NCBI RefSeq assembly: GCF_004345675.1
Contig: NZ_SLWU01000001.1
Location: forward strand, 62,001-126,000
Source of the DNA: Caldanaerobacter subterraneus
GTDB taxonomy: Bacteria > Bacillota > Thermoanaerobacteria > Thermoanaerobacterales > Thermoanaerobacteraceae
Direction of reading: 5' to 3'
Length of the DNA stretch: 64,000 bases
Shown here: one piece after another, positions 33,290-50,643 of the stretch
How positions within the stretch are numbered: the first letter of the stretch is position 1
Layout of the letters: each line of letters begins with the position of its first letter
Made by a program: the position numbers and the translations under genes
Notes under the pieces: model-generated
Database searches by the model: none
Seen by the model: only the letters and a program-made list of their open reading frames with translations
Told to the model about the DNA's origin: nothing

Positions 33290-36034
33290 TTGACAAATAA
33301 GGAGAAAGTTTTTAATCTGGTCAAAGAGCTATCCCAGAATATAAATGTAAAGGAGAAAAAGGGCATAACTGCTCAGGAGGTAGCCCGGAAATTAAATCTG
33401 AGAAGAAATGTAGCAAGTCACCTTCTAAACGAACTTCACAAGGAAGGTAAGTTAATAAAAATTAACACAAGGCCTGTGTATTTTGTAGATAGGGAAATTT
33501 ACGAAAAGAGGGCAAAGGAGTTTAAGGATACTACAAAGGATGTAAGCACTTCCTTGAAATCTTCATCAGAAGATCCTTTTGTAAAGCTTGTAGGCTACAA
33601 CGGCAGTTTAAAAGAACAGGTAAAACTGTGCAAATCTGCTGCTTCATACCCGCCAAACGGACTTCCTATTTTGCTTACTGGTAGTACAGGAGTAGGGAAA
33701 AGCTATATTGCTCAGCTAATTTATGAGTACGCCAAGTATATAGGAGTTATAGATGAAAATGCGCCGTATGTGATATTTAACTGCGCAGAATATGCAAATA
33801 ATCCTGAACTTTTGTCTGCTAATTTATTTGGTTATGTAAAAGGGGCATTTACAGGGGCTGACAGGGACAAACCAGGCCTTTTAGAAGAGGCTGATGGAGG
33901 TTATCTGTTCTTAGATGAAGTGCACAGGTTACCTCCTGAAGGGCAGGAAAAACTCTTCCTCTTTATGGACAAAGGCATATTCCGAAGGCTGGGAGAGACG
34001 AACAACTGGAGAACGGCAAAGGTAAGATTTGTATTTGCTACTACTGAAGACCCTGAAAAGACTTTTACAAAAACTTTTTTAAGAAGGATTCCTTTGGTGG
34101 TCCACATACCTTCTTTTGATGAAAGGCCTTTGCACGAAAGATTGCAATTAATTTACAATTTTTACAGAAATGAAGCAAGAAATTTAGGGATGGATATTTT
34201 AATAAGTAAACAGGTTTTGAATGTGCTTTTAAAGACAAAGGTTTCAGGGAATATCGGTAAACTTATAAATGTCATAAAATATAGCTGTGCCCAGGCTTAC
34301 AGCCATATTATCAAGAGCAAAACCAATATTTTAAGAATTCACCTTTATGACCTTCCTAAGGAAATGCAGACGGACCTTGATATAGTAAAAAGTAACTTCC
34401 ACTTCAATGGAATGCTCATTTCTCACAATAAAAAGGATGAAGGTTTGTCCTGGGAAAAGGATGACAATAGAGAGATATACAGTGCTTTAAACAAAATGTT
34501 TGAACTTTTTAAGGAATATCAAAATAATGGCATTGCTTCTGAAGAGTTTAAGAAAAACGTGTTGGTTTATTTAAACGAACTGACGGATACTATAATTTTC
34601 AAGAATGACAGCAGCTATATAGATTCAATAGTCTTTAACGCTATCAAAAATGTTGTAGAAAATGTTCTCAATATAATGCAAAACATGTATGGAATTAAAT
34701 ATTATGGCAATTCTGTTCTTGTCCTGTCTCATTTTATCAATTACCTTTTGAGTGATGTGACTTATGAGAAGTATTCTGAGAGCATAGAGTCAGCTTTGGA
34801 GATATTGAAAAATATCTTCCCGAAAGAGTTTATAATAGCAAACAAAATGGCGGATCTGATAGAGGTAAACCTCGATATTAAACTCAACAAGATTGCTGTG
34901 GCATATTTTACACTTTATGTAAGAAGTTTAAACAAGACTGAGTCAGCAAATTTGATAAATTCCATAATAATCGCTCACGGGTATTCTACTGCCAGCAGCA
35001 TTGCCAGCGTTGCTAACAGGCTTTTGGGACAGTTTGTCTTTGAAGCTTTTGACATGCCAATTGAGATGTCTACACAGGAGGTAATGGCAAGGGTTCAGGA
35101 GTATCTAAAAAATATTGATACCTCAAGAGGAGTTATCATTCTTGTTGACATGGGTTCTTTAGAGGAGATATACAAATCTTTAACTGACATTGTGGAAGGA
35201 GATATAGCGATTATAAACAACATAACAACGCAGCTGGCTTTGGATGTTGGGAATAGAATACTTCAAAATCAGCCTCTGGAGCAGATTGTTACAGAGGCGA
35301 TACAGAGGAACAGTATTACCTATAAGTTTATTAAAACAGAGAGAAAGAAAATCTCTATACTTACAACTTGTATTACAGGAATTGGAACTGCAGTTAAGAT
35401 AAGGGATTTACTATACGAATGTTTAAAAGGTGAAAAAATAGAAATAATTGCATACGACTTTAACAGATTAAGAGGAAATGGTATTGGGGATGAGATTTTC
35501 AAAGCCTATAATGTGAAACTAATTATAGGTACTGCGGATCCGGGAATAAAGGATGTACCTTATTTATCTTTAGAGGATTTAATCACAGGGAACGGGGAGG
35601 TATTGTTAAAGAGGGTTTTAGAAGGGGTTGTCGATAATGAGGTTATAGAAAAGGTAAATCAGGCAATAGTCAAACACTTTTCGTTGCAGAATGTGCTTCA
35701 ATATCTTACGTTCCTTAATCCTGCTAAAATAATTGACCAGGTAGAAAAAGCTATCAGTGATTTGGAAATTTATCTGGGATTCAAATTTCCAAATAGTCTT
35801 AAGATAAGTCTTTATATTCATGTGAGTTGTATGATAGAAAGATTGATAATGAAAGACCCTATCAATTGTTACGAAAATATTGAAGAATTTGAAAAGTGTC
35901 ATAGACACTTCATAGAAGGTGTAAAATCTTCTTGTAGTGTAATAGAAGAAACCTACAAAGTGGATATTCCACTATCAGAAATTGGGTTTATATACGATAT
36001 AATCCGCTCAAAGGTAAAAGATGTAGCTATTTGA
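33290..36034 (+). CDS. Second LevR-type sigma-54 activator (two PRDs, EIIA/EIIB-like)
   Basis: 914 residues. DNA-binding winged helix (ITAQEVARKLNLRRNVASHL, about 27-46); AAA+ domain with Walker A GSTGVGKS (about 131), GAFTGA (about 184), Walker B LFLDEVHRLP; first PRD (about 440-555); mannose-family EIIA-like domain with AHGYST (about 561); EIIB-like domain with TTCITGIGTA (about 691); second PRD (about 800-914) with IHVSCMIERL. This is the classical LevR architecture. Start TTG at 33290, 7 nt after GGGGAG. No PTS operon follows directly; repeated palindromes with a -24/-12 promoter point to the ABC operon at 36.9 kb and the mannose-type PTS operon at 50.8 kb as targets (inference). One palindrome lies within its own 3' coding end. 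Confidence 0.9.
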   Translation: MTNKEKVFNLVKELSQNINVKEKKGITAQEVARKLNLRRNVASHLLNELHKEGKLIKINTRPVYFVDREIYEKRAKEFKDTTKDVSTSLKSSSEDPFVKLVGYNGSLKEQVKLCKSAASYPPNGLPILLTGSTGVGKSYIAQLIYEYAKYIGVIDENAPYVIFNCAEYANNPELLSANLFGYVKGAFTGADRDKPGLLEEADGGYLFLDEVHRLPPEGQEKLFLFMDKGIFRRLGETNNWRTAKVRFVFATTEDPEKTFTKTFLRRIPLVVHIPSFDERPLHERLQLIYNFYRNEARNLGMDILISKQVLNVLLKTKVSGNIGKLINVIKYSCAQAYSHIIKSKTNILRIHLYDLPKEMQTDLDIVKSNFHFNGMLISHNKKDEGLSWEKDDNREIYSALNKMFELFKEYQNNGIASEEFKKNVLVYLNELTDTIIFKNDSSYIDSIVFNAIKNVVENVLNIMQNMYGIKYYGNSVLVLSHFINYLLSDVTYEKYSESIESALEILKNIFPKEFIIANKMADLIEVNLDIKLNKIAVAYFTLYVRSLNKTESANLINSIIIAHGYSTASSIASVANRLLGQFVFEAFDMPIEMSTQEVMARVQEYLKNIDTSRGVIILVDMGSLEEIYKSLTDIVEGDIAIINNITTQLALDVGNRILQNQPLEQIVTEAIQRNSITYKFIKTERKKISILTTCITGIGTAVKIRDLLYECLKGEKIEIIAYDFNRLRGNGIGDEIFKAYNVKLIIGTADPGIKDVPYLSLEDLITGNGEVLLKRVLEGVVDNEVIEKVNQAIVKHFSLQNVLQYLTFLNPAKIIDQVEKAISDLEIYLGFKFPNSLKISLYIHVSCMIERLIMKDPINCYENIEEFEKCHRHFIEGVKSSCSVIEETYKVDIPLSEIGFIYDIIRSKVKDVAI
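35895..35944 (+). promoter_or_regulatory. Palindromic activator-site pair inside levR-type 3' end (copy A)
   Basis: AGTGTCATAGACACT (35895-35909), a perfect palindrome, and the half-site AGTGTAATA (35936-35944), starting 41 nt later. The same arrangement is found at 36563 and 50595. Here it is also coding (CHRH of the second PRD). A terminator-like hairpin with TGGCATATTTTTTACT lies 150 nt downstream. Confidence 0.45.
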
Positions 36035-36035: not shown

Positions 36036-36072
36036 AGTGCCAGCAGTGTTACACTGTCTGGCATATTTTTTA
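36036..36072 (+). terminator. Terminator of the second LevR-type gene
   Basis: TGCCAG (36039-36044) pairs with CTGGCA (36058-36063), with an inner CAGTG/CACTG stem, followed by a T run. Confidence 0.7.
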
Positions 36073-36082
36073 CTCCTTTACC

Positions 36083-36535
36083 TGTGGTCCTACCTCTCTC
36101 AGAATGCTTATGGGGTATTACAATGAATGGCATTCATTAGAAGAAATTGCACTTTATATGGAGCAAATTGGAAACAGCCTATATTATGGAGGTGTAGGAG
36201 GGGATACAATAGTAGAGGCTGCTCGGCATTTTGGGTTTAAAGAGGCGAAATTAAAATATGGATGGGAGGAATTGAAAAAATCCATAGCTTCAGGAAATCC
36301 CTGTATTGTATATCTCAGGATAAGAGCGGGAGATTATCCACGGTATTATCTGGATGACAAGCCAGTATATACCAATTTTACAGGGGGACACTGGGTAGTT
36401 GTTTGTGGGTTGGAAGCTGATGAAAATGGGAATGTAAAATATGTAGTAGTCAATGATCCGGCAAGTGGGGCTAATCCTAAAAATTTACACCCTTGTCCTT
36501 CGATACAGCATGGTCGAGATTTAGGCTTTTGGTAA
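36083..36535 (+). pseudogene. Truncated C39-like cysteine peptidase fragment
   Basis: The translation CGPTSLRMLMGYYNEWHSL ... FTGGHWVVVCGL ... VVVNDPASGANP holds the catalytic Cys, His and Asp positions of a C39-type (Peptidase_C39_2) domain. The first available ATG (36104) lies after the catalytic Cys codon (36083), and the frame upstream runs into the LevR terminator and stop, so the signal peptide and N-terminus are lost. Intact relatives are secreted proteins. I read this as a gene fragment left by a rearrangement; the C-terminus may also be altered. Confidence 0.65.
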
Positions 36536-36562: not shown

Positions 36563-36613
36563 AGTGTCATAGACACTTTTCTTCGGGATTTTAAATTTCT
36601 TTGCAGTGTAATA
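36563..36613 (+). promoter_or_regulatory. Palindromic activator-site pair upstream of the ABC operon (copy B)
   Basis: AGTGTCATAGACACT (36563-36577) and half-site AGTGTAATA (36605-36613), 42 nt apart, about four helical turns. The palindrome is centred about 112 nt upstream of the -12 GC of the -24/-12 site at 36669, the usual distance for a sigma-54 activator site. Confidence 0.6.
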
Positions 36614-36643: not shown

Positions 36644-36681
36644 CCATGCCAACGGTTACTACACTTGTTGGCATGGTTTTT
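36644..36681 (+). terminator. Inverted repeat overlapping the -24 box (possible terminator)
   Basis: CCATGCCAAC (36644-36653) and GTTGGCATGG (36667-36676), perfect 10-bp arms followed by TTTTT. It could end upstream transcripts; it shares its right arm with the sigma-54 promoter. Confidence 0.6.
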
Positions 36682-36684
36682 GCA
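36669..36684 (+). promoter_or_regulatory. Sigma-54 promoter of the ABC/hexosaminidase operon
   Basis: TGGCATGGTTTTTGCA matches the -24/-12 consensus with GG and GC ten apart, 181 nt before the start of the binding-protein gene. It overlaps a terminator-like hairpin, so part of the match could be due to the hairpin arm and T run; the GC at the right place and the upstream palindromes favour a promoter. Confidence 0.6.
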
Positions 36685-36864: not shown

Positions 36865-38169
36865 ATGAGAAAATTTATTGCTTTACTAGTAGTGATGGCG
36901 TTGATAATTGGTGCTATGGCAGGATGTGCTACTAAAACCAGTCAAAAAGAGCAGCAGCCTTCTCAGGAGGCTCAACAGCCCACTCAGCCGCAAGTCACTA
37001 TAAAATTCTGGCAGGCTGGTGGAGACACAGCAGGTGCAGCTGAAAAAATGTCTGAACTCATCAAAAAGTTTGAAGAGAAACATCCAAACATTAAGGTAGA
37101 GTATATGGCAATTCCATGGGCAGAGGAACCTCATAATAAGTTCCAGACAGCTATAGTAAGCGGTGAAGTAGCTGATTTGCTGATAGTAGGATCTCCTTTT
37201 GACCACGTTCTCGCAAGCAGTGGAGCGATAATTCCTTTAGACCAGTTTATAGATGAAGAATTGAAAAAAGATCTGATGGATGTCTTTTCAAGAGAAGGAA
37301 TTTATCACGGCAAGAACAAGGACCTTGATGGCAAATTAATCTCTATACCTATGTTTGGTGATGTTAGAACGATTGTATATAACAAAGACATCTTCAAGAA
37401 AGCAGGAGTGCCTGAGCCTACAGAATCTTGGACATTAGAAGAATTTAAGCAAAATGCTTTGAAACTCACAAAAGATGGCGTGTACGGATTTGGCACTTCT
37501 GGAAGATATGCATCCCAATGGTTGCCATTTGTATGGGACAAAGGTGGAGAAATACTCAACCAGGAAATGACAGAAGCAACTATTACTACTCCAGAATGGA
37601 AAGAAGCATGGGAATATTACATTGAGCTTATCAACAAAGCTAGTATGCCGGGTTCGGTAAATGTTAACTTGGCAGAGATTCAGAAATTGTTTGCACAGGA
37701 AAAAGTAGCAATGTTTGTAACCACACAGGACTATGTAGAAGAGCTCATGAAAGATCCCAACTTAAAAGATAAAATAGGTGTTGGACAGATGCCTCATGAC
37801 AAATATCAGACAGCTTTTGCTGGAGCAGATGTTTTTGTGATTACTAAGCAATCTAAGCATCCAAAAGAAGCTTGGGAACTTTTAAGATTCCTAGTATCCA
37901 CGGAGAACCAGCTAGAGTATTGTAAGACTGTGGGATTCTTACCTGCAGTTAAGTCAGCAGCTAGCGATCCTTACTTTACAAATGACCCTGTTAAAAAAGG
38001 CTTCTTGCAGGCTCTTGAACATGGTAAATTCTATGTGAAGTCAGACAAGGCAAATGGTATAACTACGATACTGCGTGCAGAGATTCAGAATGCTATTACT
38101 GGTAAAAAGTCAGTCCAAAAAGCTTTGGAAGATGCAAAACAAGCCATAGATTTACTTCTAAATTCTTAA
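36865..38169 (+). CDS. CUT1-type ABC sugar-binding lipoprotein
   Basis: 434 residues. Lipoprotein signal MRKFIALLVVMALIIGAMAGC with the lipobox cysteine at about 21, then a short Gln/Ser linker and a type-I solute-binding fold (VTIKFWQAGGDTAGAAEKM, FEEKHPNIKVEYMAIPW, KEAWELLRFLVSTENQLEY) like UgpB/MalE-type proteins for oligosaccharides. The start is ATG 36865, behind GAGGAGGGAG. First gene of the ABC operon. A hairpin follows it, which typically makes the binding protein more abundant than the permeases. Confidence 0.9.
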   Translation: MRKFIALLVVMALIIGAMAGCATKTSQKEQQPSQEAQQPTQPQVTIKFWQAGGDTAGAAEKMSELIKKFEEKHPNIKVEYMAIPWAEEPHNKFQTAIVSGEVADLLIVGSPFDHVLASSGAIIPLDQFIDEELKKDLMDVFSREGIYHGKNKDLDGKLISIPMFGDVRTIVYNKDIFKKAGVPEPTESWTLEEFKQNALKLTKDGVYGFGTSGRYASQWLPFVWDKGGEILNQEMTEATITTPEWKEAWEYYIELINKASMPGSVNVNLAEIQKLFAQEKVAMFVTTQDYVEELMKDPNLKDKIGVGQMPHDKYQTAFAGADVFVITKQSKHPKEAWELLRFLVSTENQLEYCKTVGFLPAVKSAASDPYFTNDPVKKGFLQALEHGKFYVKSDKANGITTILRAEIQNAITGKKSVQKALEDAKQAIDLLLNS

Positions 38170-38225: not shown

Positions 38226-38317
38226 TGTAATAAATTTAGGTGCCTACAAATTGATCTTGTTTCCAGAAGAAATTTGCGGAAGAGAGAATTCATATTAGGA
38301 AAGTGGTGGAGGAAAAG

Positions 38318-39211
38318 ATGATCGTTACAAATAGAAAAGAGAAAGTTGGATATTACTTATTCTTGTTGCCAGCCTATTTGATTTTTGCAGTATTTATTTT
38401 TTGGCCTGTGGTTCACTCTTTGTATCTTTCTTTTTTCAAATATAACATAGTTACAATTACTTCTCCACAATTTGTGGGATTGAGGAATTATCTATATTTA
38501 CTCAAAGACGAGGTTTTCTGGATAAGTTGCAAAAACACCTTGTTTTTTGTGATAGGTACTGTTCCTGTGAAGATGTTTTTAGGCCTTTTGGCTGCAATGC
38601 TTCTCAATAGAAAGGATTTGAAATTTAAAGCTTTCTACAGAACCTGCTTTTATATTCCTGTGGTAGTCTCTATGGTAGCAATTTCCATCGTGTGGATGCT
38701 TCTTTTCAACCCGGGTCCAAATGGAGTAGTAAATATTTTGCTTTCAAAATTTGGAATTCAGCCGCTAGGTTGGATAGCAGATTCTAAACTTGCGCTGCCT
38801 ACAGTGATGTTGCTAGTAATATGGAAAGATTTGGGTTATATTATGGTAATTTACTTAGCAGGGCTTATGGCAATTCCCGATGAAATTTATGAAGCGGTGG
38901 CATTAGATCCCGTGAGCTCGTGGCAGAAATTTTGGTATATTACATGGCCTTTATTAAAACCAACAACGATCTTTATACTTATCACCCAGGTGATAGATTC
39001 ATTCCAGGTATTTACTCCAATTTATGTGATGACAGAAGGAGGACCGGGCTATAGTAGTACTACTATAGTAAATTACCTATATGATAAAGGTTTTAGAGAA
39101 TACGAGATGGGAATTGCATGTGCAGTAGCATACCTGTTATTTGTGGTGTTACTTGTTTTAACCATACTGCAGAACAAACTTTCTAAAGCAGAAGAAGTAT
39201 CTTACGACTAA
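38318..39211 (+). CDS. ABC sugar permease, UgpA/MalF type
   Basis: 297 residues, six predicted transmembrane helices, and the cytoplasmic EAA loop EAVALDPVSSWQKFWYITWP that contacts the ATPase. ATG at 38318 lies 5 nt after GGAGG; GTG codons at 38303/38306 overlap that site. Works with the next gene product. Confidence 0.9.
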   Translation: MIVTNRKEKVGYYLFLLPAYLIFAVFIFWPVVHSLYLSFFKYNIVTITSPQFVGLRNYLYLLKDEVFWISCKNTLFFVIGTVPVKMFLGLLAAMLLNRKDLKFKAFYRTCFYIPVVVSMVAISIVWMLLFNPGPNGVVNILLSKFGIQPLGWIADSKLALPTVMLLVIWKDLGYIMVIYLAGLMAIPDEIYEAVALDPVSSWQKFWYITWPLLKPTTIFILITQVIDSFQVFTPIYVMTEGGPGYSSTTIVNYLYDKGFREYEMGIACAVAYLLFVVLLVLTILQNKLSKAEEVSYD

Positions 39212-39253: not shown

Positions 39254-40078
39254 GTGAAAAAACTGTTGCTTTATTTAATATTGACTTTAATTGCCTTTTT
39301 GATGCTTTCCCCACTGTTATGGATGGTATCTACTTCGCTTTCTAAGGACTCTGTAATTGTATCTACAAGCCTTATCCCAAAAGAATTTACTTTAGAAAAT
39401 TATGTAAAAGCATGGAATTTTCCTCGTATATTCAATAAAGATGTGACTTTTGGCACATTCTTTTTGAATAGCATAATAGTGACGGTATGTCTTGTTATAG
39501 GAGGACTTTTTTTTGACTCGCTGGCGGGATATGTTCTTGCTAGAAAGGATTTCCCGGGAAGAAGTTTGTTTTTCTATGCTGCCCTTATAACCCTTATGAT
39601 TCCCTTTTATGTTACAGCAATACCTATGTTTCTTATAGTTAAAGGATTGGGCTGGATTAATACCTATCAGGGTTTAATTGTTCCCTTCCTATCATCTGGG
39701 TTTGGGATATACATGTTTAAACAATATTTCCAGACAATTCCTATTGAATTGGAGGAAGCTGCAAAAATAGATGGTTATTCAGACTTCTGGATTTACGCCC
39801 GAGTGATAGTGCCTCTTGCCAAGCCAGCATTTGCAACAATGGGAATTTTAAAGTTTTTGTGGTCATGGAACATGTTCTTTTGGCCTTTGATCGTTACTAC
39901 AGATATCAAGATGAAGGTATTGCAGCTAGGGCTTACAATGTTTAGGGGTCTTAATGTGACTCAATGGGGACTTCTTACAGCAGGTATGACCATGGCAACA
40001 CTGCCTACTATTTTGGTATACTTGCTTTTCCAGAGATACTTTACAAGTGGTTTGATAGCAGGCTCTTTAAAAGGCTAA
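39254..40078 (+). CDS. ABC sugar permease, UgpE/MalG type
   Basis: 274 residues, six transmembrane helices, EAA loop EEAAKIDGYSDFWIYARVIVP. Start GTG at 39254 behind AGAGAGGG. The second half of the CUT1 importer. No ABC ATPase gene occurs in this operon or window; CUT1 systems in Firmicutes often share one MsmX-type ATPase. Confidence 0.9.
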   Translation: MKKLLLYLILTLIAFLMLSPLLWMVSTSLSKDSVIVSTSLIPKEFTLENYVKAWNFPRIFNKDVTFGTFFLNSIIVTVCLVIGGLFFDSLAGYVLARKDFPGRSLFFYAALITLMIPFYVTAIPMFLIVKGLGWINTYQGLIVPFLSSGFGIYMFKQYFQTIPIELEEAAKIDGYSDFWIYARVIVPLAKPAFATMGILKFLWSWNMFFWPLIVTTDIKMKVLQLGLTMFRGLNVTQWGLLTAGMTMATLPTILVYLLFQRYFTSGLIAGSLKG

Positions 40079-40097: not shown

Positions 40098-41111
40098 ATG
40101 AAAATTTTTGCTGGGTACGACTGCGGAGGCAGTAAAACAAAGTGCATTATTGCAGATGAAAATGGAGAAATCTTGGCCAGTGCGGAAGAGGGGCCTTCAA
40201 ATTTTCTTTCTTGCGGTTATGAAATTGCAAGAAAATCCATAAAGGAATGCACCCGACAGGCTCTAATAAAGGCGGGTTTGGAAGAAGATCAAAAAATTTA
40301 CAGTGCCTATATAGGGTCAGCATCTGTTGAGTTGTTTTCTCAAAATGAAAGGATTTATAACTTTTTCAGGAGTTGTGTTAATGCAGAGCATCTGGGGATA
40401 AACAACGATGCCTATATAGCTTGGTATGGGACTACTTTTGGAAGTACAGGAATCATATCAATAGCAGGTACTGGGGCAGTGACTTACGGAATACGCGAAG
40501 ACGGGAGTTGGAAAAAGGTAGGAGGATGGGGATATCTTATAGGAGATGACGGCTCAGGATATTCGTTAGGGAGGAAAGCTCTTCAATTAGCAGTGAAGTC
40601 ATATGATGGAATAATTGAAAAAAATAGATTTGAAGAGGAGATATCAAAGTTTTTTAATTTGGATTCCATGAGAGACCTTGTAGGAATGTTGTATCAGGAC
40701 CCCTACAAAGGAGTGAAGATAGTAGCTTCTGCTGCCACATGTGTTTTTAAATTATTCGATGCCAACTATTGTTTAGCGATAGAACTCATAGATAAGGCAG
40801 TTTCTCAGATTGCCGATTCAATATATGCAGTTTATTCTTCGCTGGATTTAAGAAACCAATTTATCAAAATAGGAGTATCGGGAGGAGTATTTTACGGAGG
40901 AGGAAGTAAATTACTAGATCTTCTTCAAAGTAAACTTATAGAGCGTGGGGTGGAAAAGTTCTGCCTCACCTTCCCTCACATACCTCCTGAGGTTTCAGCG
41001 CTGTTACTTTCTTACAGCCAAGTAAAACATCAAGATTACGAGAAGATAAAGCAGGCTATCTTATGCCGATTCAAAAACAACAATGAGGTGGATCAAAATT
41101 GCGTATTCTAG
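40098..41111 (+). CDS. BadF/BadG-family ATPase, probable amino-sugar kinase
   Basis: 337 residues with an actin-type ATPase fold: phosphate-1 loop FAGYDCGGSKTKCIIADENG, IISIAGTGAVTYGIREDG and VGGWGYLIGDDGSGYSLG. The family includes N-acetylglucosamine kinases and MurK-type kinases for N-acetylmuramic acid and N-acetylglucosamine. In an ABC-importer and hexosaminidase operon it most likely phosphorylates the imported amino sugar. A paralogue heads the PTS operon at 50.8 kb. Its stop overlaps the next gene by 13 nt. Confidence 0.8.
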   Translation: MKIFAGYDCGGSKTKCIIADENGEILASAEEGPSNFLSCGYEIARKSIKECTRQALIKAGLEEDQKIYSAYIGSASVELFSQNERIYNFFRSCVNAEHLGINNDAYIAWYGTTFGSTGIISIAGTGAVTYGIREDGSWKKVGGWGYLIGDDGSGYSLGRKALQLAVKSYDGIIEKNRFEEEISKFFNLDSMRDLVGMLYQDPYKGVKIVASAATCVFKLFDANYCLAIELIDKAVSQIADSIYAVYSSLDLRNQFIKIGVSGGVFYGGGSKLLDLLQSKLIERGVEKFCLTFPHIPPEVSALLLSYSQVKHQDYEKIKQAILCRFKNNNEVDQNCVF

Positions 41112-42376
41112 GAGGATATGGAGAAAGAGTGATTACACCTCCTTTCCTGGGAATTATGGCAGGATATGATAAAAGAAAAAGCCCGGCAAAAGGAGTTCAT
41201 GATGACCTTTATGTTAAATGCTTGGTTTTTAAAAAAGAAGAGGAAATATTTGTTTTATTTTCACTTGACGTTTTAGGGGTGGACAAAAAACTTGTTGACG
41301 AAATAAAAACGCAGGTTAAATCTCTTGTGAATATCCCTGGCGAGCACATTCTTGTATGTGCTACTCATACCCATAGCGGTCCTTCAGAAATATTTTGGGG
41401 AAAAGATAATTTTAACCCTGAATACTGGAATTTTGTAGTTTCACAATGTAAGAATAGTTTTGAAGAAGCACTTAATGACCTGAAAGAGTCTGCTTTATGG
41501 TACGGAAAGAAGGAAATTTATGGAATTGGTTCAAAAAGAAATGCGTACAGCGCTGAAAGAAGAGAAGAAGGCATTAAATGCAAATTTTTTGAAGTAAGAA
41601 GGGAAAAAGATGAGATTGCCATAGTTAATTTTCCTTGCCACCTTACAGTATTAGATGAAAATAATCTTTACTATTCCAAAGATTTAGTCCAGGGATTAAA
41701 GTTGGAGCTGGAGGAAAATAAGATAAAAAAGTTTGTATTTATAAATGGAGCTGCTGGGGATATAAGTACCCGATTTTACAAAAAGGAATCTACGTTTGAA
41801 GAAGCGGAAAGATTGGGGCGTGTACTGGGGAAAGAAATATTAGGTGAAAGACCGCGGATGAAGAAAATTGAGATTAACGAGCCAAAATGGGCAAAAGAAA
41901 TTGAGCTTTTATTGAAATACAAAAGGAATTTCTCGAAAGAAGAAAAAGAGCGCAAAAAAGCTGAAATACTGCAAATTCTTGCTCAGATAAATGATAAGAG
42001 GGCCAGAAGAGACTTGGAGTCTGCATTGATAGTTCTAGAAAGGCCGGATAGGGACTTTTCAAAAATTCCTGAAGTTATTAAAAGAGGGGAAGATTTTCTA
42101 AAAAAAATAAAAATAAGTCTATGGAAAATGGGAGATATTGTTTTTGTAGGGGTTCCTTTTGAAATTTATTATGATACGGGGCTTAAAATTGAAAAAATGG
42201 TGAAGGAAAAATATAAAAAAGCTGTAGTACTGGTACTGGGATACTGTGGTGGGTATGAAGGTTATATCCCTCCCTCAGAGAATTTTTCTCGAATTTCCTA
42301 TGAAGTAATCGCATCTCCCTTTGAAGAAGATGCAGAAGAAGAAATGCTTGAAGCGCTAAGAAAAGAACTAAATTAG
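41099..42376 (+). CDS. Neutral/alkaline ceramidase-like hydrolase
   Basis: 425 residues resembling the N-terminal domain of neutral/alkaline non-lysosomal ceramidases: GERVITPPFLGIMAGYDKRK at the start, CATHTHSGP (about 88-96, zinc-binding His residues), FINGAAGDIS and FVGVPFEIYYDTGL. Short bacterial members in sugar operons are uncharacterised; the fold suggests amide hydrolysis, for example removal of an N-acyl group. No signal peptide, so cytoplasmic. Starts with TTG inside the kinase gene behind GAGGTGG, indicating translational coupling. Confidence 0.75.
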   Translation: MRILGGYGERVITPPFLGIMAGYDKRKSPAKGVHDDLYVKCLVFKKEEEIFVLFSLDVLGVDKKLVDEIKTQVKSLVNIPGEHILVCATHTHSGPSEIFWGKDNFNPEYWNFVVSQCKNSFEEALNDLKESALWYGKKEIYGIGSKRNAYSAERREEGIKCKFFEVRREKDEIAIVNFPCHLTVLDENNLYYSKDLVQGLKLELEENKIKKFVFINGAAGDISTRFYKKESTFEEAERLGRVLGKEILGERPRMKKIEINEPKWAKEIELLLKYKRNFSKEEKERKKAEILQILAQINDKRARRDLESALIVLERPDRDFSKIPEVIKRGEDFLKKIKISLWKMGDIVFVGVPFEIYYDTGLKIEKMVKEKYKKAVVLVLGYCGGYEGYIPPSENFSRISYEVIASPFEEDAEEEMLEALRKELN

Positions 42377-42390
42377 AGCGGTGGTGAAAA

Positions 42391-43518
42391 ATGAAATACT
42401 TTCAGCTGGAAGAAGCATTGAAGTTGTTAGAAGAATTTAGCAGAATAGAGAGTCCAAGTAGAGAAAAAAAGTATACTGATAGATTTGTAGATCGGTTGGA
42501 AATAGAATTTTATAATCTGGGAATGAATGTAAAGCGAATAAAACAGCAAGATGTTGGGGATTTTTTAGAATGTTCTATAGGAGAAGGAAAGAAAAAGATT
42601 CTTCTTTTGGGGCATATTGATACAGTCTTTCCTTCAGGTACTTTTTCAAAAAGGCCCTTCAGGGTAAAAGATGGCATGGCTTTCGGGCCTGGAGTACTTG
42701 ATATGAAGGGGGGAATTGTGGTTCTTCTGTATACCCTTAAAGAAGTTATTGATGACCTTCCAGATGGAGTAAAACTTGTGGCCTTTTTAAACAGCGACGA
42801 AGAAATTGGTTCGATTTACAGCAAAGATTACATTATGGACCTTTCAAAGGAGGCCGTGGCGTGTCTCTCATTTGAACCTGCCAAACCCGGGACTCTTACA
42901 GTAGAAAGAAAGGGAATTTTTAGCTTTGAAATGTTTGTAAAAGGAATTCCAGCCCATTCGGGAGTAAACTATGAAAAGGGAAAAAGTGCGATAGAAGAAA
43001 TATCTCGCAAAATATGTACTCTTTACGATGAAGTGAGAGACTTAGAAAAAGGTATAAGTGTGAACGTGGGATATGTGCAGGGAGGAGACAAAATAAATAT
43101 AGTTGCAGAAGAAGCAAGGGCCCAAGTGGAAGTAAGGTATTTTCAAAGAGAACATGAAAGGGAGATAAAAGAGAAAATTGAGAAAATAACTGCTACTTCT
43201 TTTGTTGAAGGAACAAGCACAAATATTGTCATACTTTCAGAAAGGCCTCCTTTAATTGCCAATGAGGGATGTAGGAAGTTATTTGAAATTGCTAAAGAAG
43301 AAGCTCAAAAATTGGGAAGAGAAATTATTGGAAGAAAAACTGGTGGAGGGGGGGATGCCTCTTTTGCGGCAGTATGGGGTATACCGGTGCTAGATGGACT
43401 TGGACCAGAGGGGGAAGATTCTCATACAGATGCAGAATTTGTTTTGGTGGATAGCCTCCCATTTAAAGTAGCTCTGGCTGCCAGAATTATACTAAGGATA
43501 GCGGAAGGAGGGTTCTAG
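42391..43518 (+). CDS. M20-family metallopeptidase
   Basis: 375 residues. Zinc ligands and catalytic residues of M20: LLGHIDTVFP, GPGVLDMKGG, NSDEEIGS (paired Glu), SFEPAKPG and HTDAEFVLVDSL near the end; a dimerisation domain sits between. It is closest in style to carboxypeptidase G2/ArgE types, which remove C-terminal residues or acyl groups. In this operon it may trim the peptide or acyl part of imported glycopeptides (inference). Confidence 0.85.
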   Translation: MKYFQLEEALKLLEEFSRIESPSREKKYTDRFVDRLEIEFYNLGMNVKRIKQQDVGDFLECSIGEGKKKILLLGHIDTVFPSGTFSKRPFRVKDGMAFGPGVLDMKGGIVVLLYTLKEVIDDLPDGVKLVAFLNSDEEIGSIYSKDYIMDLSKEAVACLSFEPAKPGTLTVERKGIFSFEMFVKGIPAHSGVNYEKGKSAIEEISRKICTLYDEVRDLEKGISVNVGYVQGGDKINIVAEEARAQVEVRYFQREHEREIKEKIEKITATSFVEGTSTNIVILSERPPLIANEGCRKLFEIAKEEAQKLGREIIGRKTGGGGDASFAAVWGIPVLDGLGPEGEDSHTDAEFVLVDSLPFKVALAARIILRIAEGGF

Positions 43519-44250
43519 GTGAATACCCGATATATAGAGAGTATCAGAAAATTAATAGATGAGATTGAAAAGACGCAGTGGCAGGTAATAGAACAGGTTT
43601 CCCAAGTATGTGCACAGGCAATAAAAAACGACAAACTTCTTTATTTCTTTGGGACTGGACATTCACATATGATGTGCGAAGAGCCTTTTTACAGGGCTGG
43701 TGGCCTTGCATGTGTATATCCAATATTGGAACCTTCTCTTATGCTCCACGAGGGAGGATATAAAAGCACCTTGATGGAGAGAGTAGAAGGGATAGGGAAG
43801 ATACTTCTGGAAAACAGTGGGCCAAGTGAAGGAGATGTACTATTTTTGATTTCAAATTCCGGTAGAAATTCTGCAGTAATAGAAATGGCTATCGAGGCAA
43901 AAGAAAAGGGAATTATCACTGTAGCCATTACATCTCTAAAACATTCAAAGACCTTCTCTTCCAGGCACAGAAGTGGCAAAAACCTCTATGAACTTACGGA
44001 TTATGTAATAGATAATTGTGGAATTCCTGGAGATGCAATAGTGGAATACGAAGGCTTTTCTCAGAAGGTAGGACCTACTTCTTCTATTGCTGGAATTCTT
44101 ATAATAAACACTATAATAACCAACGTAGTGGAGAAATTATTGTCCTGGGGTATAACACCTCCAGTATTCATAAGTGCCAATACGGACGAAGGTGAAAAGT
44201 TTAACCAACACCTTCTTGAAAAGTACAGGCTTCGAATAAAGGTTTTGTGA
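43519..44250 (+). CDS. SIS-domain sugar-phosphate protein (UPF0309-like)
   Basis: 243 residues with a phosphosugar-binding SIS fold: FFGTGHSHMMCEEPFYRAGG at the N-terminus and FLISNSGRNSAVIEMAIEAK in the middle. The MRAGG-like segment and length fit the UPF0309 group rather than MurQ etherases. It may isomerise or bind an amino-sugar phosphate. Start GTG at 43519 follows the previous stop without any gap, with GGAGG in the end of the M20 gene. Confidence 0.8.
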   Translation: MNTRYIESIRKLIDEIEKTQWQVIEQVSQVCAQAIKNDKLLYFFGTGHSHMMCEEPFYRAGGLACVYPILEPSLMLHEGGYKSTLMERVEGIGKILLENSGPSEGDVLFLISNSGRNSAVIEMAIEAKEKGIITVAITSLKHSKTFSSRHRSGKNLYELTDYVIDNCGIPGDAIVEYEGFSQKVGPTSSIAGILIINTIITNVVEKLLSWGITPPVFISANTDEGEKFNQHLLEKYRLRIKVL

Positions 44251-44281
44251 AAGATTAAAAGCGTTGAGGGGGGGGTATATT

Positions 44282-46507
44282 ATGAAATGGTGTAAAAAGG
44301 TTGTAAGCTTAATTATTTCGGTATGTATGGTGATGACTTTCATCAGTCTGAAAGAAAGCAGTGCCATTGCCAAAGAAAAAGAGGGGAGAGAAGAAGTGAG
44401 AGTAGCAGTATTAGAAGCGAAGGAAGCTACAACTCCAAAAAGTGTAGAACAAGTCATTCACGTGTTAAAGGAATATGGAATAAAAGCTGAAAAAATTTCA
44501 CCAAAGGAGGTTGCAAAGGACAAACTAGAGAAATTCGATGTAATTGTCATACCTGGAGGAAGGTCTCTCAATCAGGCAGAAGCCCTGGGAGAGAAGGGTC
44601 GGGAAGCTATTAAGGAATTTGTTAAAAGAAGAGGAGGATACATCGGAATTTGTGCAGGGACATATCTCGCTACCAAGGGCGAGGGTAAATATGATTCCTA
44701 TCTTGGAATTGTGAATGCTCAAGTCGTTGATATTGAACACTGGAACAGGGGATGTGGTGACGTCCAAATTAAGGTAAAATCGCTGGAGCATCCTGTGATT
44801 TCTGGTTATTATGGAACTCTCACCGTCCACTATAAAAACGGACCTATTTTGAAAAAAATTGATGTACCAGGTATGCCATCTTACGTAGAATTGGCTTCCT
44901 ACATCAGCGATATTCATGACAACGGACCGGAAGGAATTACGCCTAACACTCTGGCTTTAATTGCTTCAGAATATGGTGAAGGAAGAATAGTACTTTTCAG
45001 CTTTCATCCCGAATATACTGCGGGGCTGGGAAAAATGCTTATGCAAGCGGTATTGTGGTGTGCAAAAACTTCTCCCGAAGAGTATCCTCTCAAGTTAAAG
45101 AAAAGCCATGATGTGAAAGTCAAAGGGGCATGGCTGTGGGGAAGCACAGTGTACAATTTGGGAGTAGATGGAGCGAAGATAATAACAGATCAGATGAAAG
45201 AATATGGTTTTACCGATATATTTCTTCTTGTAAAAGGGACGGCAGGGAGAGTTGATTATAATAGCAGAATAGCTTTGGGACTAGCTCATCCCGATAGGGA
45301 TATATTAAAAGAAGTAGTAGAGGAAGCACACAAAAAGGGAATAAGAGTTCATGCCTGGTTTGTTGTGAACTCTGATAAACAGTGGGCAACGCTTCATCCC
45401 GAAGATAGGATGGTACACATCAAGAAAGGGCCCGATGATAGTAGGATATCTCCATTATCTATAAATTACAGGGAATATGTAAAGAATCTTGTAAAAGAAG
45501 TCTTGGAAAACTATAAGGTCGATGGAATTCACCTGGATTATATAAGATATCCACACGTGGTATTTGGATTTAATGAGAATTATGAGGTTACAGAAGCAGT
45601 AAAAATAGGAATAGATATGAATAAAATAAAATCTTTGATAGATCGCACTTTCTATACGGATAAAGATGGCAAATCTATATTTGAAGCGTATGATAGAGGA
45701 GATAAAGATGTTGTTGGATGGATAGAAATGAGGAAAAACGCCGTAAAATCTTTTGCAGAGGAAATAAAGGAAGTAGTGAAGTCCTACAGTCGAAAAGTGA
45801 AATTTTCTGCTGCATTGATGCCAGAAGGAGCATATGATTCTAACTTCTTAACAGCCCAGAATGATTCTAGAACCTTTGCATTAGTGCATTATGGACAGGA
45901 TTATAAAGATGCTTCTTCCATTTATGACTTTGCGGTGCCTATGCTTTATTGGGGGGACTATGGCAAATCACCCCAATGGACTGCAGTACTTTATAACAAT
46001 GCAGTAGAAATGTTTGATAATAATAAGAGAGTATATGCTGGATTACAGGCATACAGTCCTGTTAAAACTTATGACCTTTGTGATGCAGTAAATTATATAA
46101 GACAAAGTGAAAGCGAAGGAATAGTTTTCTTCAGGTTTGGGACTTTTGGCTTAAGTAAAACTGCAGTGAAAGAGGCGAAAGATGGCGAAAAAGTGATGAC
46201 CGTGATTATGACAAATCCTTTAAACCAGGATAATTCACCGAATGTCGACATTACGAAGGTTGAAATAGAGCTTAAAGGAAACTATGTAGCAAAGGAGATC
46301 GTGGAAACAAGTTCAGAAATCTCTGCCAAAATTTCTGAGAGTGGAAAAGTAGTTATAATAACAGGTAATCCTTGTATACCACAGAATGGAACATTGAAAA
46401 TTGCCATATCAGTTCGAGGGGAAGAACCCAAGGATGTAGAACCTGCCCAGGTTAGATTTTACGTAACAGACAAGTACTATGAAGTAAGAGTCTACAACCA
46501 ATACTAA
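44282..46507 (+). CDS. Secreted BPL_N amidotransferase-like + GHL10-type glycosidase fusion
   Basis: 741 residues. A signal peptide (about 1-30) is followed by a class-I glutamine-amidotransferase-like domain of the biotin-ligase N-terminal type (VIVIPGGRSLNQAEALG, GYIGICAGTYLA with Cys at about 125, FSFHPEY), then a TIM-barrel domain (about 280-600) of the GHL10/DUF187 type (AWLWGSTVYNLG, VHAWFVVN, VDGIHLDYIRYPH) and a C-terminal beta domain. GHL10 proteins are putative glycoside hydrolases acting on cell-wall or other glycans. Start ATG 44282, after a run of nine G; TTG 44264 rejected. A terminator-like hairpin follows. Confidence 0.75.
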   Translation: MKWCKKVVSLIISVCMVMTFISLKESSAIAKEKEGREEVRVAVLEAKEATTPKSVEQVIHVLKEYGIKAEKISPKEVAKDKLEKFDVIVIPGGRSLNQAEALGEKGREAIKEFVKRRGGYIGICAGTYLATKGEGKYDSYLGIVNAQVVDIEHWNRGCGDVQIKVKSLEHPVISGYYGTLTVHYKNGPILKKIDVPGMPSYVELASYISDIHDNGPEGITPNTLALIASEYGEGRIVLFSFHPEYTAGLGKMLMQAVLWCAKTSPEEYPLKLKKSHDVKVKGAWLWGSTVYNLGVDGAKIITDQMKEYGFTDIFLLVKGTAGRVDYNSRIALGLAHPDRDILKEVVEEAHKKGIRVHAWFVVNSDKQWATLHPEDRMVHIKKGPDDSRISPLSINYREYVKNLVKEVLENYKVDGIHLDYIRYPHVVFGFNENYEVTEAVKIGIDMNKIKSLIDRTFYTDKDGKSIFEAYDRGDKDVVGWIEMRKNAVKSFAEEIKEVVKSYSRKVKFSAALMPEGAYDSNFLTAQNDSRTFALVHYGQDYKDASSIYDFAVPMLYWGDYGKSPQWTAVLYNNAVEMFDNNKRVYAGLQAYSPVKTYDLCDAVNYIRQSESEGIVFFRFGTFGLSKTAVKEAKDGEKVMTVIMTNPLNQDNSPNVDITKVEIELKGNYVAKEIVETSSEISAKISESGKVVIITGNPCIPQNGTLKIAISVRGEEPKDVEPAQVRFYVTDKYYEVRVYNQY

Positions 46508-46611: not shown

Positions 46612-48210
46612 GTGGAAATAAATAAGATGAGTTTGGATGAGAAAATAGGTCAAATGATTATGGCAGGTTTCCCTTCTAATTATTATGATGAGCACATTGA
46701 CGTACTTGTAAGCAAGTACAAGGTAGGAAATTTTGTATTGTTTACAAGAAATATAGGTTCTGTAGAAGAGATTGTCAGTCTTACCGAGACCATTCAAAAA
46801 AAGGTCCTTGAACAATCAGGTATACCTGCTATTATAGGAGCAGATCAAGAAGGAGGGATGGTCAGCCAAGTTAGGGAAGAGGCTGTATTTTTTCCAGGGA
46901 ATATGGCAGTATCCGCTGCAAATATAGAAGGAAGCACATTGAAAGAAGGAGAGATAGTAGGAGAAGGTCTCAAAGCCTTGGGTATAAATCTTAATATAGC
47001 ACCTGTACTGGATGTGAATAACAATCCTAAAAACCCCATAATTGGCGTGAGGTCATATGGGGATGACCCTGAGAGAGTAGCTAGACTAGGGATTGATTTT
47101 ATAAAAGGCATGCAAAGCAAAGGAGTAATTGCTACAGCAAAACACTTTCCAGGTCACGGAGATACGTCGGTAGACAGCCATCTTGATATGCCTGTTGTCC
47201 CTTATGACAGAGAGAGGCTTGAAAGAATGGAGTTTTATCCTTTCAGAAAAGCAGTGGAAGTTGGTGTGGATGCAATTATGACAGCTCATATATATTTTCC
47301 GGCAATGGATACTGAAAAAATTCCTGCTACCTTATCTTACAACATCCTCACAAAGCTTTTGAGAGAGGATATGTGTTTTGAGGGGATTACCATAACTGAT
47401 TGTATAGAGATGAATGCAATTTCAAAGAAATTCGGTTCGGAAAAAGGAGCAGTCAAGGCGATAAATGCTGGTGCTGATATGGTAGTTATATCCCATCATC
47501 TGGATGTACAGATAAGGTGCATAGAGGCTATAAAGGAAGCTGTTCTAAACGGAGAAATTCCTGAGGAAAGGATAAATGAATCAGTAGAGAGGATATTGAG
47601 GATAAAGAAAAAGTATGGATTCTTTGAAAATCCTTATCCTGACCTGATCAGAGCAAAAGAAGTGTTAAGTTGCAAAGAGTATATAGAATTTGCTAGAGAA
47701 CTCAGTGAAAAAAGTATTACCCTCATAAAAGATGAAAAAGGGCTGATACCTCTTGGTGATGCTAAAGATATGAGAATTGTCTTCATTTCTCCAGAGCCGA
47801 AAATGTTTATGGGAGGGATATGGGAGGCTGTCAGAAGGAAGTATACTCTATCAGAAGTTTTGAAGGAGGAGTTTGGAGGAAAATCAATAGTGATTTCCTT
47901 CAATCCGGAGGAGAATGAGCTAGAAAAAGTGGTTGAGGAGTGTAGAGAGAGTGACAAAATAGTAATAGGAGTTTCCGCGCTGAATTTAAACCCGGGGCAA
48001 GTAGAGCTTGTGCGCAGGTTATCTTGCTTGGGAAAAGATATAATAACGATTTTACTTGGAAATCCATATGATTTTCTTCTGATAAAGGAATATGTTTCTA
48101 CCTGCATTTGTGCTTATGAACATACTCCTTTATCGGTGAAAAGTGTTAGAAAAGTTTTAAAAGGAGAAATAAAATGTGAAGGAGTTTTGCCTGTAAAGAT
48201 AGAAATATAA
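46612..48210 (+). CDS. nagZ: GH3 beta-N-acetylhexosaminidase (NagZ-like)
   Basis: 532 residues: TIM barrel with GADQEGGMVSQVR, the NagZ signature KHFPGHGDTSVDSHLDMP (acid/base His-Asp pair) and GITITDCIEMNAI (nucleophile Asp), and a C-terminal second domain as in Gram-positive enzymes. There is no signal peptide, so it acts on imported glycans. It releases terminal N-acetylglucosamine from muropeptides or chitin-type oligosaccharides. Start GTG 46612 behind GGGAGGGAG. Confidence 0.9.
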   Translation: MEINKMSLDEKIGQMIMAGFPSNYYDEHIDVLVSKYKVGNFVLFTRNIGSVEEIVSLTETIQKKVLEQSGIPAIIGADQEGGMVSQVREEAVFFPGNMAVSAANIEGSTLKEGEIVGEGLKALGINLNIAPVLDVNNNPKNPIIGVRSYGDDPERVARLGIDFIKGMQSKGVIATAKHFPGHGDTSVDSHLDMPVVPYDRERLERMEFYPFRKAVEVGVDAIMTAHIYFPAMDTEKIPATLSYNILTKLLREDMCFEGITITDCIEMNAISKKFGSEKGAVKAINAGADMVVISHHLDVQIRCIEAIKEAVLNGEIPEERINESVERILRIKKKYGFFENPYPDLIRAKEVLSCKEYIEFARELSEKSITLIKDEKGLIPLGDAKDMRIVFISPEPKMFMGGIWEAVRRKYTLSEVLKEEFGGKSIVISFNPEENELEKVVEECRESDKIVIGVSALNLNPGQVELVRRLSCLGKDIITILLGNPYDFLLIKEYVSTCICAYEHTPLSVKSVRKVLKGEIKCEGVLPVKIEI

Positions 48211-48249
48211 ATAAAACTATCGTTATTGAATAAGGAGGTAAAAAATGTA

Positions 48250-49383
48250 ATGGAAGGTCCAAGAGCTTGTAGAAAAGAGGAATTTAAAGAAGCATTAGAT
48301 CTTATTAACCACGTATTTCGCATTACTCAGGGTCACGAGCCTACGATGGGGCAGGAGTTTCCTCTACTTCTCAGCGAAGATAATCTGGAAAACATGAGGG
48401 TAATTGCAGAGGATGGGAAAATAGTATCTATTGTAAATTTCTACATCACCACGATTCTAATAGAAGGAACTCCTATAAAAGCTGCTTCAGTAGGAGCAGT
48501 TTGTACTCATGAGGACTACAGAGGAAAGGGATATTCTTCCCTGTTACTGGATGATGCAGAAAAAGAGATGAAGAAAAAGGGAGTAGATGTTGTGCTTGTC
48601 TCTGGAGATAGAAGCCTGTACTTGAGAAGGGGGTATTGTAAAGCTGGATGGGCAATCCGATTTGATGTATACCCTGAAGAATTGGGAGAGGATATTGAGC
48701 TTGTGGAATTTGAAGATAAGTATTTGATTGAAATGGCGAAAATGTACAATAAACAAACTACTAGATATTATAGAAGCTTGTTTGAATTCAAAAACCTTCT
48801 AAAAGGTGCAACTACACCATGGGGAAATTTCACTTACAAGACTTATCTTGTAAAGAGAGGAGATGTTTTAAAAGGATATGTAGTTCTTCGTATAATTCAC
48901 GAAAACCCTGAAAGAGGATATGTAGTTGAATACGGGGGCGACGAGAGGACTGTGCTTAAGAGTTTAAAAAAGATGGCAGTAGTACATTCTCTGACCCATA
49001 TTCGAGTACCCTGTACTTTTAATGAAAAAATGGTAGAAGTCATAAAAGAAGAAAATATTCCTTTTGAAGAAATTAATCTTCTAGGAACAGTTAAAGTTTT
49101 GAATTTCAAACAACTAATGGAAAAACTAGTTCCATACTTTTCTCAGTATGTAGAAAAAGAAATTATAAAAAATTTGAAATTTGTCGAGGATGAGGGTAAA
49201 TATACTATAGAATTCAATGGAGAAACTCTGACATTGGATGGGGTAGAGAAACTTACAAAATTAGTTTTTGGAGACAAAGGATTTGGAATAGCCCTTGATG
49301 GAGTAGGACCTCGCCTAAAAGAATTTTTCTCAAGAGTGTTTCCATTGCCTTTTGTATGGCCTGGAAATCTCAATTTCCAGTGA
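48250..49383 (+). CDS. GNAT-family acetyltransferase, Eis-like
   Basis: 377 residues. N-terminal GNAT fold with acetyl-CoA loop VCTHEDYRGKGYSSLLLDDAE, a second GNAT-like half, and a C-terminal SCP2-like domain ending in a terminal FPLPFVWPGNLNFQ. This two-GNAT plus sterol-carrier layout is that of Eis-type aminoglycoside/lysine acetyltransferases. In this operon an amino-sugar or amine substrate is likely. ATG at 48250 chosen, 11 nt after AAGGAGG; TTG 48226 lies upstream of that site. Confidence 0.75.
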   Translation: MEGPRACRKEEFKEALDLINHVFRITQGHEPTMGQEFPLLLSEDNLENMRVIAEDGKIVSIVNFYITTILIEGTPIKAASVGAVCTHEDYRGKGYSSLLLDDAEKEMKKKGVDVVLVSGDRSLYLRRGYCKAGWAIRFDVYPEELGEDIELVEFEDKYLIEMAKMYNKQTTRYYRSLFEFKNLLKGATTPWGNFTYKTYLVKRGDVLKGYVVLRIIHENPERGYVVEYGGDERTVLKSLKKMAVVHSLTHIRVPCTFNEKMVEVIKEENIPFEEINLLGTVKVLNFKQLMEKLVPYFSQYVEKEIIKNLKFVEDEGKYTIEFNGETLTLDGVEKLTKLVFGDKGFGIALDGVGPRLKEFFSRVFPLPFVWPGNLNFQ

Positions 49384-49470
49384 GGTAGAGTTGGTGAAGG
49401 ATATATAATATATTATATTACTTAACTGTACTGTAGTATGGAACGTATAAGAAGAAGGAGATGAGAAAAA

Positions 49471-49851
49471 ATGCTCATGAAAATACTGAGAACATTCCTT
49501 GGATGTTTTTTGACAGGGTTAATAGTTCAAAGTGCATGGGTAGCGCTGGTAGAGGCCTACGGGCTTATAGGGGGATGGTTTGCGGCCTTCATCATAATAA
49601 GTCCTATGTGGTTTCTAAATCATTACCTGGGGTTGATTGAAAATGAAAAGGATGGAGCATGGATTGATATGGCAATAGGCATTGCTGTGGCGGGGCTGGT
49701 GAGAGATCTATTTAAGGTTCATTCTTTCAGCTTTGCTTTCAAAGTCTTGCCAGTTTTGCTTGCAGTCATCGCAGGAGGAATTGTAGGAGGCTATCTCGCG
49801 GTGTTTGTAAAACAAGGGATGGCAAAAGAAACGGAGGAGGAGAAGGTATGA
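49471..49851 (+). CDS. Small membrane protein 1 of a paralogous pair
   Basis: 126 residues with four predicted membrane segments. Core pattern GLIGGWFAAFIIISPMWFLN, HYLGLI, DGAWIDMAIG is repeated in the next gene's product. From memory this resembles proteins annotated as Lin0368-family putative glycerol-transporter subunits; that label is unverified. It overlaps the next gene by 4 nt, suggesting a two-subunit membrane complex serving this operon. Confidence 0.7.
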   Translation: MLMKILRTFLGCFLTGLIVQSAWVALVEAYGLIGGWFAAFIIISPMWFLNHYLGLIENEKDGAWIDMAIGIAVAGLVRDLFKVHSFSFAFKVLPVLLAVIAGGIVGGYLAVFVKQGMAKETEEEKV

Positions 49852-50594: not shown

Positions 50595-50643
50595 AGTGTC
50601 ATAGACACATAGAAATTCTTATCCTGTTTTTATCAGTGTCATA
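50595..50643 (+). promoter_or_regulatory. Palindromic activator-site pair upstream of the PTS operon (copy C)
   Basis: AGTGTCATAGACACA (50595-50609; inner 13 bases a perfect palindrome) and half-site AGTGTCATA (50635-50643), 40 nt apart. Same arrangement as at 35895 and 36563. Confidence 0.6.

What the first reader, a model, noticed from the sequence alone, without database searches (positions are those of the whole stretch)
36669..36684. Sigma-54 promoter for an ABC-type sugar importer operon
TGGCATGGTTTTTGCA is a full -24/-12 match 181 nt before the binding-protein gene and about 112 nt after the palindrome centre. Sigma-54/LevR control is known for mannose-family PTS operons; finding it in front of a CUT1 ABC operon is unusual. 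The -24 box doubles as one arm of a perfect 10-bp hairpin, so the DNA may serve as terminator and promoter.
Basis: partly seen in the sequence, partly recalled or inferred. Interest (0 to 1): 0.72.

Follow-up and report, generated by a model that had tools for sequence, protein, structure and literature searches.

The report
Sugar-importer operon captured PTS-type sigma-54 promoter
In two related thermophile genomes an ABC sugar-import operon sits behind a sigma-54 promoter, activator and enhancer that in their relatives switch on a different kind of sugar importer (a PTS), so a whole uptake system appears to have been slotted in behind an existing switch.

Summary
TGGCATGGTTTTTGCA lies at 36669-36684, forms the 3' arm of a 10-bp hairpin and stands 181 nt before the CUT1 binding-protein ATG. 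A -24/-12 element follows the adjacent LevR-type activator gene (levR2, 33290-36034) in all 12 family genomes that hold a levR2 ortholog. In 10 of 12 it precedes a mannose-family PTS; in the window's genome and one relative (G006) an ABC operon stands there instead. The 'palindrome' is half of a paired enhancer, AGTGTCATAGACAC-about 41 nt-AGTGTMATA, found 11 times in 10 genus genomes, always at levR2-linked sites: nine inside levR2's own 3' coding region, one before the ABC promoter, one before a displaced PTS operon in this window. The codons under it are the most synonymously conserved of levR2. The hairpin is optional: the promoter persists without it in relatives. So the ABC operon most likely belongs to a LevR2/sigma-54 regulon together with that PTS. 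Caveats: everything is in silico, and this assembly's rpoN carries a one-base frameshift in a homopolymer run. New variant of a known kind.

The parts
33290..36034 (+). levR2: LevR/DagR-like sigma-54 activator (wHTH-like N-terminus, AAA+ with GAFTGA, PRD, EIIA-man, PRD)
   Evidence: Pfam; nearest NCBIfam DagR, below its cut-off; GAFTGA and His481/563/844/871
35895..35944 (+). intragenic paired enhancer (UAS) in the levR2 3' coding region: AGTGTCATAGACACT (35895-35909) and AGTGTAATA (35936-35944)
   Evidence: pair pattern in 9 of 10 genus genomes, 0 in the reversed control; codons FEKCH/EKCHR/KCHRH are the top 3 of 810 windows for synonymous identity
36059..36074 (+). broken promoter copy P1 (TGGCATATTTTTTACT, -12 GC lost) and 3' arm of the hairpin just after the levR2 stop
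36065..36535 (+). 5'-truncated C39-like peptidase ORF between P1 and the second enhancer; only in this genome of 10 of the genus
36563..36613 (+). second, non-coding paired enhancer: AGTGTCATAGACACT (36563-36577) and AGTGTAATA (36605-36613)
36644..36676 (+). 10-bp perfect hairpin, terminator-like with following T-run; 3' arm overlaps the -24 box
36660..36665 (+). promoter-proximal TACACT (matches the complement of AGTGTA), invariant in the 7 LevR2-type promoters aligned
36669..36684 (+). sigma-54 -24/-12 promoter P2 (TGGCATGGTTTTTGCA); predicted start near 36695
36865..38169 (+). CUT1-type extracellular solute-binding protein
38303..39211 (+). ABC permease 1
39254..40078 (+). ABC permease 2
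40098..46507 (+). BadF/NagK-like kinase, ceramidase-like, M20 peptidase, SIS-domain, GHL10 hydrolase genes of the ABC block
46612..50180 (+). GH3/NagZ-like hexosaminidase, acetyltransferase-like and two small membrane-protein-like genes; also conserved in G006
50595..50643 (+). third paired enhancer: AGTGTCATAGACACA (50595-50609) and AGTGTCATA (50635-50643), non-coding
50722..50737 (+). LevR2-type promoter of the PTS operon (TGGCACATTTTTTGTT, -12 GT), no hairpin
50798..57324 (+). NagK-like kinase, mannose-family PTS IIB/IICD/IIA, tagatose/fructose-bisphosphate aldolase, PfkB, AgaS

Best explanation
The element is the sigma-54 promoter of the ABC operon, activated by the neighbouring LevR2. LevR2 binds paired AGTGTCATAGACAC/AGTGTMATA sites 40-42 bp apart (about four helical turns), loops to the -24/-12-bound polymerase and opens it through its AAA+/GAFTGA domain. 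Ancestrally this switch (activator gene, enhancer in its last codons, promoter just after its stop) drove a mannose-family PTS. In the lineage of the window's genome and G006 an ABC amino-sugar/oligosaccharide operon lies between levR2 and a PTS, and each operon has its own LevR2-type enhancer and promoter. The PTS, by phosphorylating LevR2 on its PRD/EIIA histidines, would then gate the ABC operon too. The hairpin is most likely the transcription terminator of the preceding gene, laid over the -24 box. Shown: sequences, conservation, gene order. Inferred: binding, looping, activation, phosphorylation, termination.
For: A -24/-12 element 3' of levR2 in 12 of 12 loci; PTS behind it in 10, ABC in 2. 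The paired enhancer occurs 11 times in 10 genus genomes, every time at levR2 or its two target promoters; the reversed control has 0, and the genome without levR2 (G003) has 0. Exact palindrome in this genome: 3 places, all here. Synonymous codon identity is 1.0 at the enhancer against 0.665 overall, the best 3 of 810 windows (11 of 12 orthologs, the partial G015 left out). The same enhancer/promoter, non-coding, stands before the PTS operon in the window and, slightly degenerate, in G006. TACACT and TTGGCA..TTTTTG shared by 7 promoters (the first T of TTGGCA differs in the broken P1). GAFTGA (10 of 11; GTFTGA in G006) and candidate phospho-histidines kept in 11 of 11. No conserved SigA promoter between P2 and the gene.
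Against: No transcript or binding data. rpoN in this assembly is frameshifted in a C run; if real, the promoter is silent here. The loose motif is not enriched in the window, and 20 of 30 strict genome hits examined lie in long sense or antisense frames other than the two spurious ones. A SigA-like 11-of-12 match lies at 36839-36866, though over the ribosome-binding site and not conserved in G006. A read-through route from levR2 is not excluded. G006 LevR2 has GTFTGA.
Confidence: 0.85

Rival explanations
1. The element is only the 3' arm and T-run of an intrinsic terminator that happens to resemble -24/-12.
For: Strong hairpin with a T-run; hairpins with this arm in 8 of 13 promoters folded; the broken copy at 36059 has the hairpin without the -12 GC.
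Against: In G012, G013, G009, G001 and the window's own PTS promoter the -24/-12 element is kept with no comparable hairpin; enhancer pairs accompany it.
Confidence: 0.07
2. The promoter was once functional but is a relic in this strain: rpoN is broken and the ABC operon is now read from another promoter or by read-through.
For: One-base frameshift in rpoN in this assembly; the CBD match is unbroken in 8 of 9 relatives searched, G008 also being split. SigA-like match at 36839-36866.
Against: The frameshift lies in a homopolymer run, a common place for sequencing or assembly error; promoter P2, enhancers and activator are intact, with no decay beyond P1.
Confidence: 0.1
3. The promoter serves sigma-54 but is driven by another activator, not LevR2.
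For: The genome has several AAA+ activators and another LevR-type gene at 20281-23184.
Against: The enhancer pair is present in 9 of 9 genus genomes that have levR2 and absent from the one without it; it sits inside levR2.
Confidence: 0.05

Closest known systems
Bacillus subtilis LevR / levDEFG sigma-L promoter (and MptR/ManR mannose-PTS systems)
   Same: PRD/EIIA AAA+ activator with -24/-12 promoter and palindromic upstream site; activator gene next to its target (B. subtilis details recalled; MptR passages read in PMC8262876).
   Different: Target here is a CUT1 ABC operon as well as a PTS; an enhancer pair lies in the activator's own coding sequence.
DagR (NCBIfam NF047795), a sigma-54 regulator (its link to a mannose-family PTS is recalled)
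   Same: Best family match over the full length, 578 bits.
   Different: Far below its equivalog cut-off of 1400 bits; different regulon.
Sigma-54 regulons reconstructed in Clostridiales (PMC6615313, passages read)
   Same: LevR group controls levDEFG-sacC; four PRD-type activator groups.
   Different: 'ABC transporter' and 'Thermoanaerobacter' have 0 occurrences in its main text.
Enterococcus faecalis sugar ABC EF2223-21 (PMC8262876, passages read)
   Same: An ABC sugar operon whose expression depends on RpoN status.
   Different: There it goes UP in the rpoN mutant, has a cre site and is up in the ccpA mutant: indirect, opposite sign.

Membership tests
sigma-54-dependent promoter | -24 GG and -12 GC with 10 nt between | tested here: met
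sigma-54-dependent promoter | conservation in orthologous loci | tested here: met
   12 of 12 levR2 loci
sigma-54-dependent promoter | rpoN in the genome | tested here: inconclusive
   present, but frameshifted in this assembly
sigma-54-dependent promoter | transcription lost without rpoN | not testable with these tools
   needs a mutant or in vitro transcription
LevR-type (PRD) sigma-54 activator | AAA+ sigma-54 interaction domain with GAFTGA, PRD and EIIA-man domains | tested here: met
LevR-type (PRD) sigma-54 activator | upstream activating sequence linked to the activator | tested here: met
   (sequence evidence only; binding not tested)
DagR (NF047795) | score above equivalog cut-off | tested here: not met
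   578 of 1400 bits
CUT1 ABC sugar importer | SBP_bac_1 binding protein and two BPD_transp_1 permeases | tested here: met
   no ATPase family among the block's proteins scanned, a shared ATPase elsewhere was not searched for
intrinsic terminator | GC-rich hairpin followed by a T-run | tested here: met
   the pattern scan did not list it (its loop limit is 8, loop here 13)

The most novel reading that the evidence does not exclude
levR2 is a self-contained, portable switch: its 3' coding sequence carries its own enhancer, its terminator hairpin overlaps its target promoter, and unrelated uptake systems (three mannose-family PTS types and one ABC block) have been exchanged behind it. An ABC importer thereby came under the phosphorylation control of a PTS that it does not belong to.
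Probability: 0.55. Interest if true: 0.65.

Novelty: new variant of a known kind. Interest (0 to 1): 0.52.

Why it matters
It gives a traceable case in which a regulator, its enhancer and its promoter stay put while the transported cargo changes class, from group-translocating PTS to ATP-driven ABC. Because the enhancer lies in the activator's codons, the switch cannot easily be parted from its promoter, which may explain the repeated cargo exchange. It also predicts that PTS flux, not ABC substrate, gates the ABC operon.

Tried and rejected
Pure-terminator reading: rejected because the -24/-12 element persists without the hairpin.

Chance match: the loose motif is indeed at chance level in the window, so the argument was moved to conservation.

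Unit 2 as a decayed copy of the levR2 tail: the first 95 nt of the unit match the levR2 tails of G000 and G006 better than shuffles (44 and 49 against maxima 26 and 31 of 300). But the stretch between its two enhancer elements does not (241 and 231 of 1000 shuffles as good), so descent from levR2 is not shown.

A general rule of intragenic enhancers for all LevR paralogs: the same codon test on levR1 and levR3 orthologs (8 sequences each) did not single out any tail site, many windows being at 1.0.

Further LevR2 targets in the genome: the palindrome with up to 2 mismatches gives 13 hits against 5 for the reversed control. The one single-mismatch hit looked coding. No -24/-12 pattern was found in the loci of the weak hits, in this genome (9 of 10; one had no locus) or in G006 (7 of 7).

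Home of the truncated C39 peptidase: no match in the 9 other genus genomes.

Close relatives of the binding protein outside G006: best at about 30% (80 of 230 loci listed).

Full report
OBSERVATION. TGGCATGGTTTTTGCA is at 36669-36684 on the + strand. The arms 36644-36653 and 36667-36676 pair perfectly over 10 bp, and the 66-nt segment folds at -21.9 kcal/mol, z -4.3, 0 of 200 shuffles as good. The binding-protein ATG is at 36865, 181 nt downstream. The palindrome AGTGTCATAGACACT is at 36563-36577, centred 112 nt before the -12 GC. All stated distances hold.

CHANCE. One-mismatch forms of TGGCN7TTGCW number 28 in the window against 26.2 expected, so the loose motif proves nothing. The strict form TGGCAN6TTGCW occurs 37 times in the genome and once for the reversed pattern. 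Of the 30 hits with loci (of 37), 22 have a long ORF across them, two of these (window 23205 and 36669) only an antisense ORF. Nine hits apart from ours lie outside long sense ORFs. The first sizeable ORFs behind them are PTS EIIA, Dak1, a G3P antiterminator, E1 dehydrogenase, a subtilase, enoyl-CoA hydratase, 3-hydroxyacyl-CoA dehydrogenase, an Asp23-like ORF and an AOR. None is another ABC operon. The identical 16-mer stands before the Dak1 gene, next to a sigma-54 activator.

NEIGHBOURHOOD. Upstream is levR2 (33290-36034), 914 aa: sigma-54 interaction domain, EIIA-man, PRD, nearest NCBIfam DagR but below cut-off. Its GAFTGA is intact, and His481, 563, 844 and 871 are kept in 11 of 11 orthologs aligned. 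Downstream are a CUT1-type binding protein, two permeases, a NagK-like kinase, a ceramidase-like protein, an M20 peptidase, a SIS protein, a GHL10 hydrolase and a NagZ-like GH3. Then comes a mannose-family PTS operon with AgaF-like IIA (below cut-off), tagatose-type aldolase, PfkB-like kinase and AgaS-like protein. The gene set suggests amino-sugar oligosaccharide use; this is inference.

RELATIVES. Of 20 family genomes searched with LevR2, 12 hold an ortholog at 69% or more (one partial, G015). In all 12 a -24/-12 element lies 3' of levR2: 16-115 nt after the stop in the 11 relatives, and in the window's genome 637 nt after it, beyond a broken copy. G007's ends in G; I read it from the printed sequence because the script's pattern did not list it. 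Behind it lies a mannose-family PTS in 10 of 12 and the ABC block in 2, this genome and G006 (contig of 62,918 bases, matching DULG01000038.1, a Clostridia MAG). The PTS genes are of three kinds, sharing mostly about 23-38% between kinds and 47-100% within: G004/5/7/8; G009/1/2, whose kind recurs as a second PTS in G012 and G013 (72-82% where matched); and G012/13/15. No other close relative of the binding protein turned up.

ENHANCER. The palindrome and a second AGTGTMATA lie 40-42 nt apart in this genome. AGTGTMATAGN{26,38}AGTGTMATA matches 11 times in 10 genus genomes and 0 times reversed. There are three matches in this genome (levR2 tail; 36563; 50595, before the PTS operon) and one in each of the 8 other genomes with levR2, inside its 3' coding region; G003, without levR2, has none. 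In levR2 the codon windows FEKCH, EKCHR and KCHRH rank first to third of 810 for synonymous identity (1.0 against 0.665 overall, 11 orthologs; also first to third of 752 with 8 less redundant ones). G006 has a one-mismatch palindrome before its own PTS, with a promoter TGGCATGCTTTTTGTT. Seven such promoters share TACACT and TGGCA..TTTTT. Both PTS promoters (this genome, G006) have GT instead of GC at -12, which may weaken them.

HAIRPIN. Of 13 promoters folded, 8 have the -24 box as arm of a hairpin of -16 kcal/mol or lower, and 5 do not: this genome's PTS, G009, G001, G012, G013 (G002 and G015 not folded). The promoter is the constant, the hairpin the option. Terminator-plus-promoter is therefore plausible in the 8 and not needed elsewhere.

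LOCAL ACCIDENT. In this genome only, a 5'-truncated C39-like ORF (36065-36535) follows the first promoter copy, whose -12 GC is lost (36059-36074). An enhancer pair and the intact promoter then follow. Whether this second unit is a duplicate of the levR2 tail is not shown.

ALTERNATIVES. A SigA-like match (36839-36866) spans the ribosome-binding site and is not conserved in G006. rpoN of this assembly is split by a one-base frameshift in a C run. The CBD match is unbroken in 8 of 9 relatives; G008 is also split. This may be an assembly error or a real loss, and it is the main caveat.

LITERATURE. Nie et al. 2019 (PMC6615313, passages): LevR controls levDEFG-sacC, and 'ABC transporter' has 0 occurrences in the main text. 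PMC12316311 (passages): in the passage on Bacillota carbohydrate transport, sigma-54 targets are PTS, gluconate symporter and MFS. PMC8262876 (passages): LevR-like activators are activated by HPr and inhibited by EIIB phosphorylation; a sugar ABC operon there is raised in the rpoN mutant and carries a cre site. Searches for a LevR-driven ABC operon or an enhancer inside the activator gene listed none that I recognised; only titles and abstract starts of those lists were seen, and most subscription papers are not held. B. subtilis LevR details are recalled.

Noticed in passing
L001 621-1983 (G000:C18): rpoN is split by a one-base frameshift in a C run in this assembly; its CBD match is unbroken in 8 of 9 genus relatives (G008 also split).
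   Followed up: partly
window 20281-23184 and 23205-23220: A second LevR-type activator (levR1) with a -24/-12 element (TGGCATAATTCTTGCT) just after its stop and a PTS EIIA gene behind it: the same layout as levR2.
   Followed up: partly
window 20278-20433 (L002 1501-1656): The N-terminus of levR1 matches the C-terminal part (positions 104-160) of the sigma-54 DNA-binding domain family above its cut-off: an activator with a sigma-54-like DNA-binding element.
   Followed up: no
L058 downstream of levR3 (G000:C10) and orthologs: A third LevR paralog has a palindrome-like ACACATATGTGTA or near form at or just after its stop, then, in the loci printed far enough, a -24/-12-like element about 110 nt on; seen in 7 of 8 loci printed (not L052).
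   Followed up: no
window 36065-36535: Truncated C39-like peptidase ORF starting at the broken promoter; no match in the 9 other genus genomes.
   Followed up: partly
L208 4094-4150 (G006): PTS promoter with a very strong hairpin (-24.2 kcal/mol) whose 3' arm is the -24 box.
   Followed up: partly
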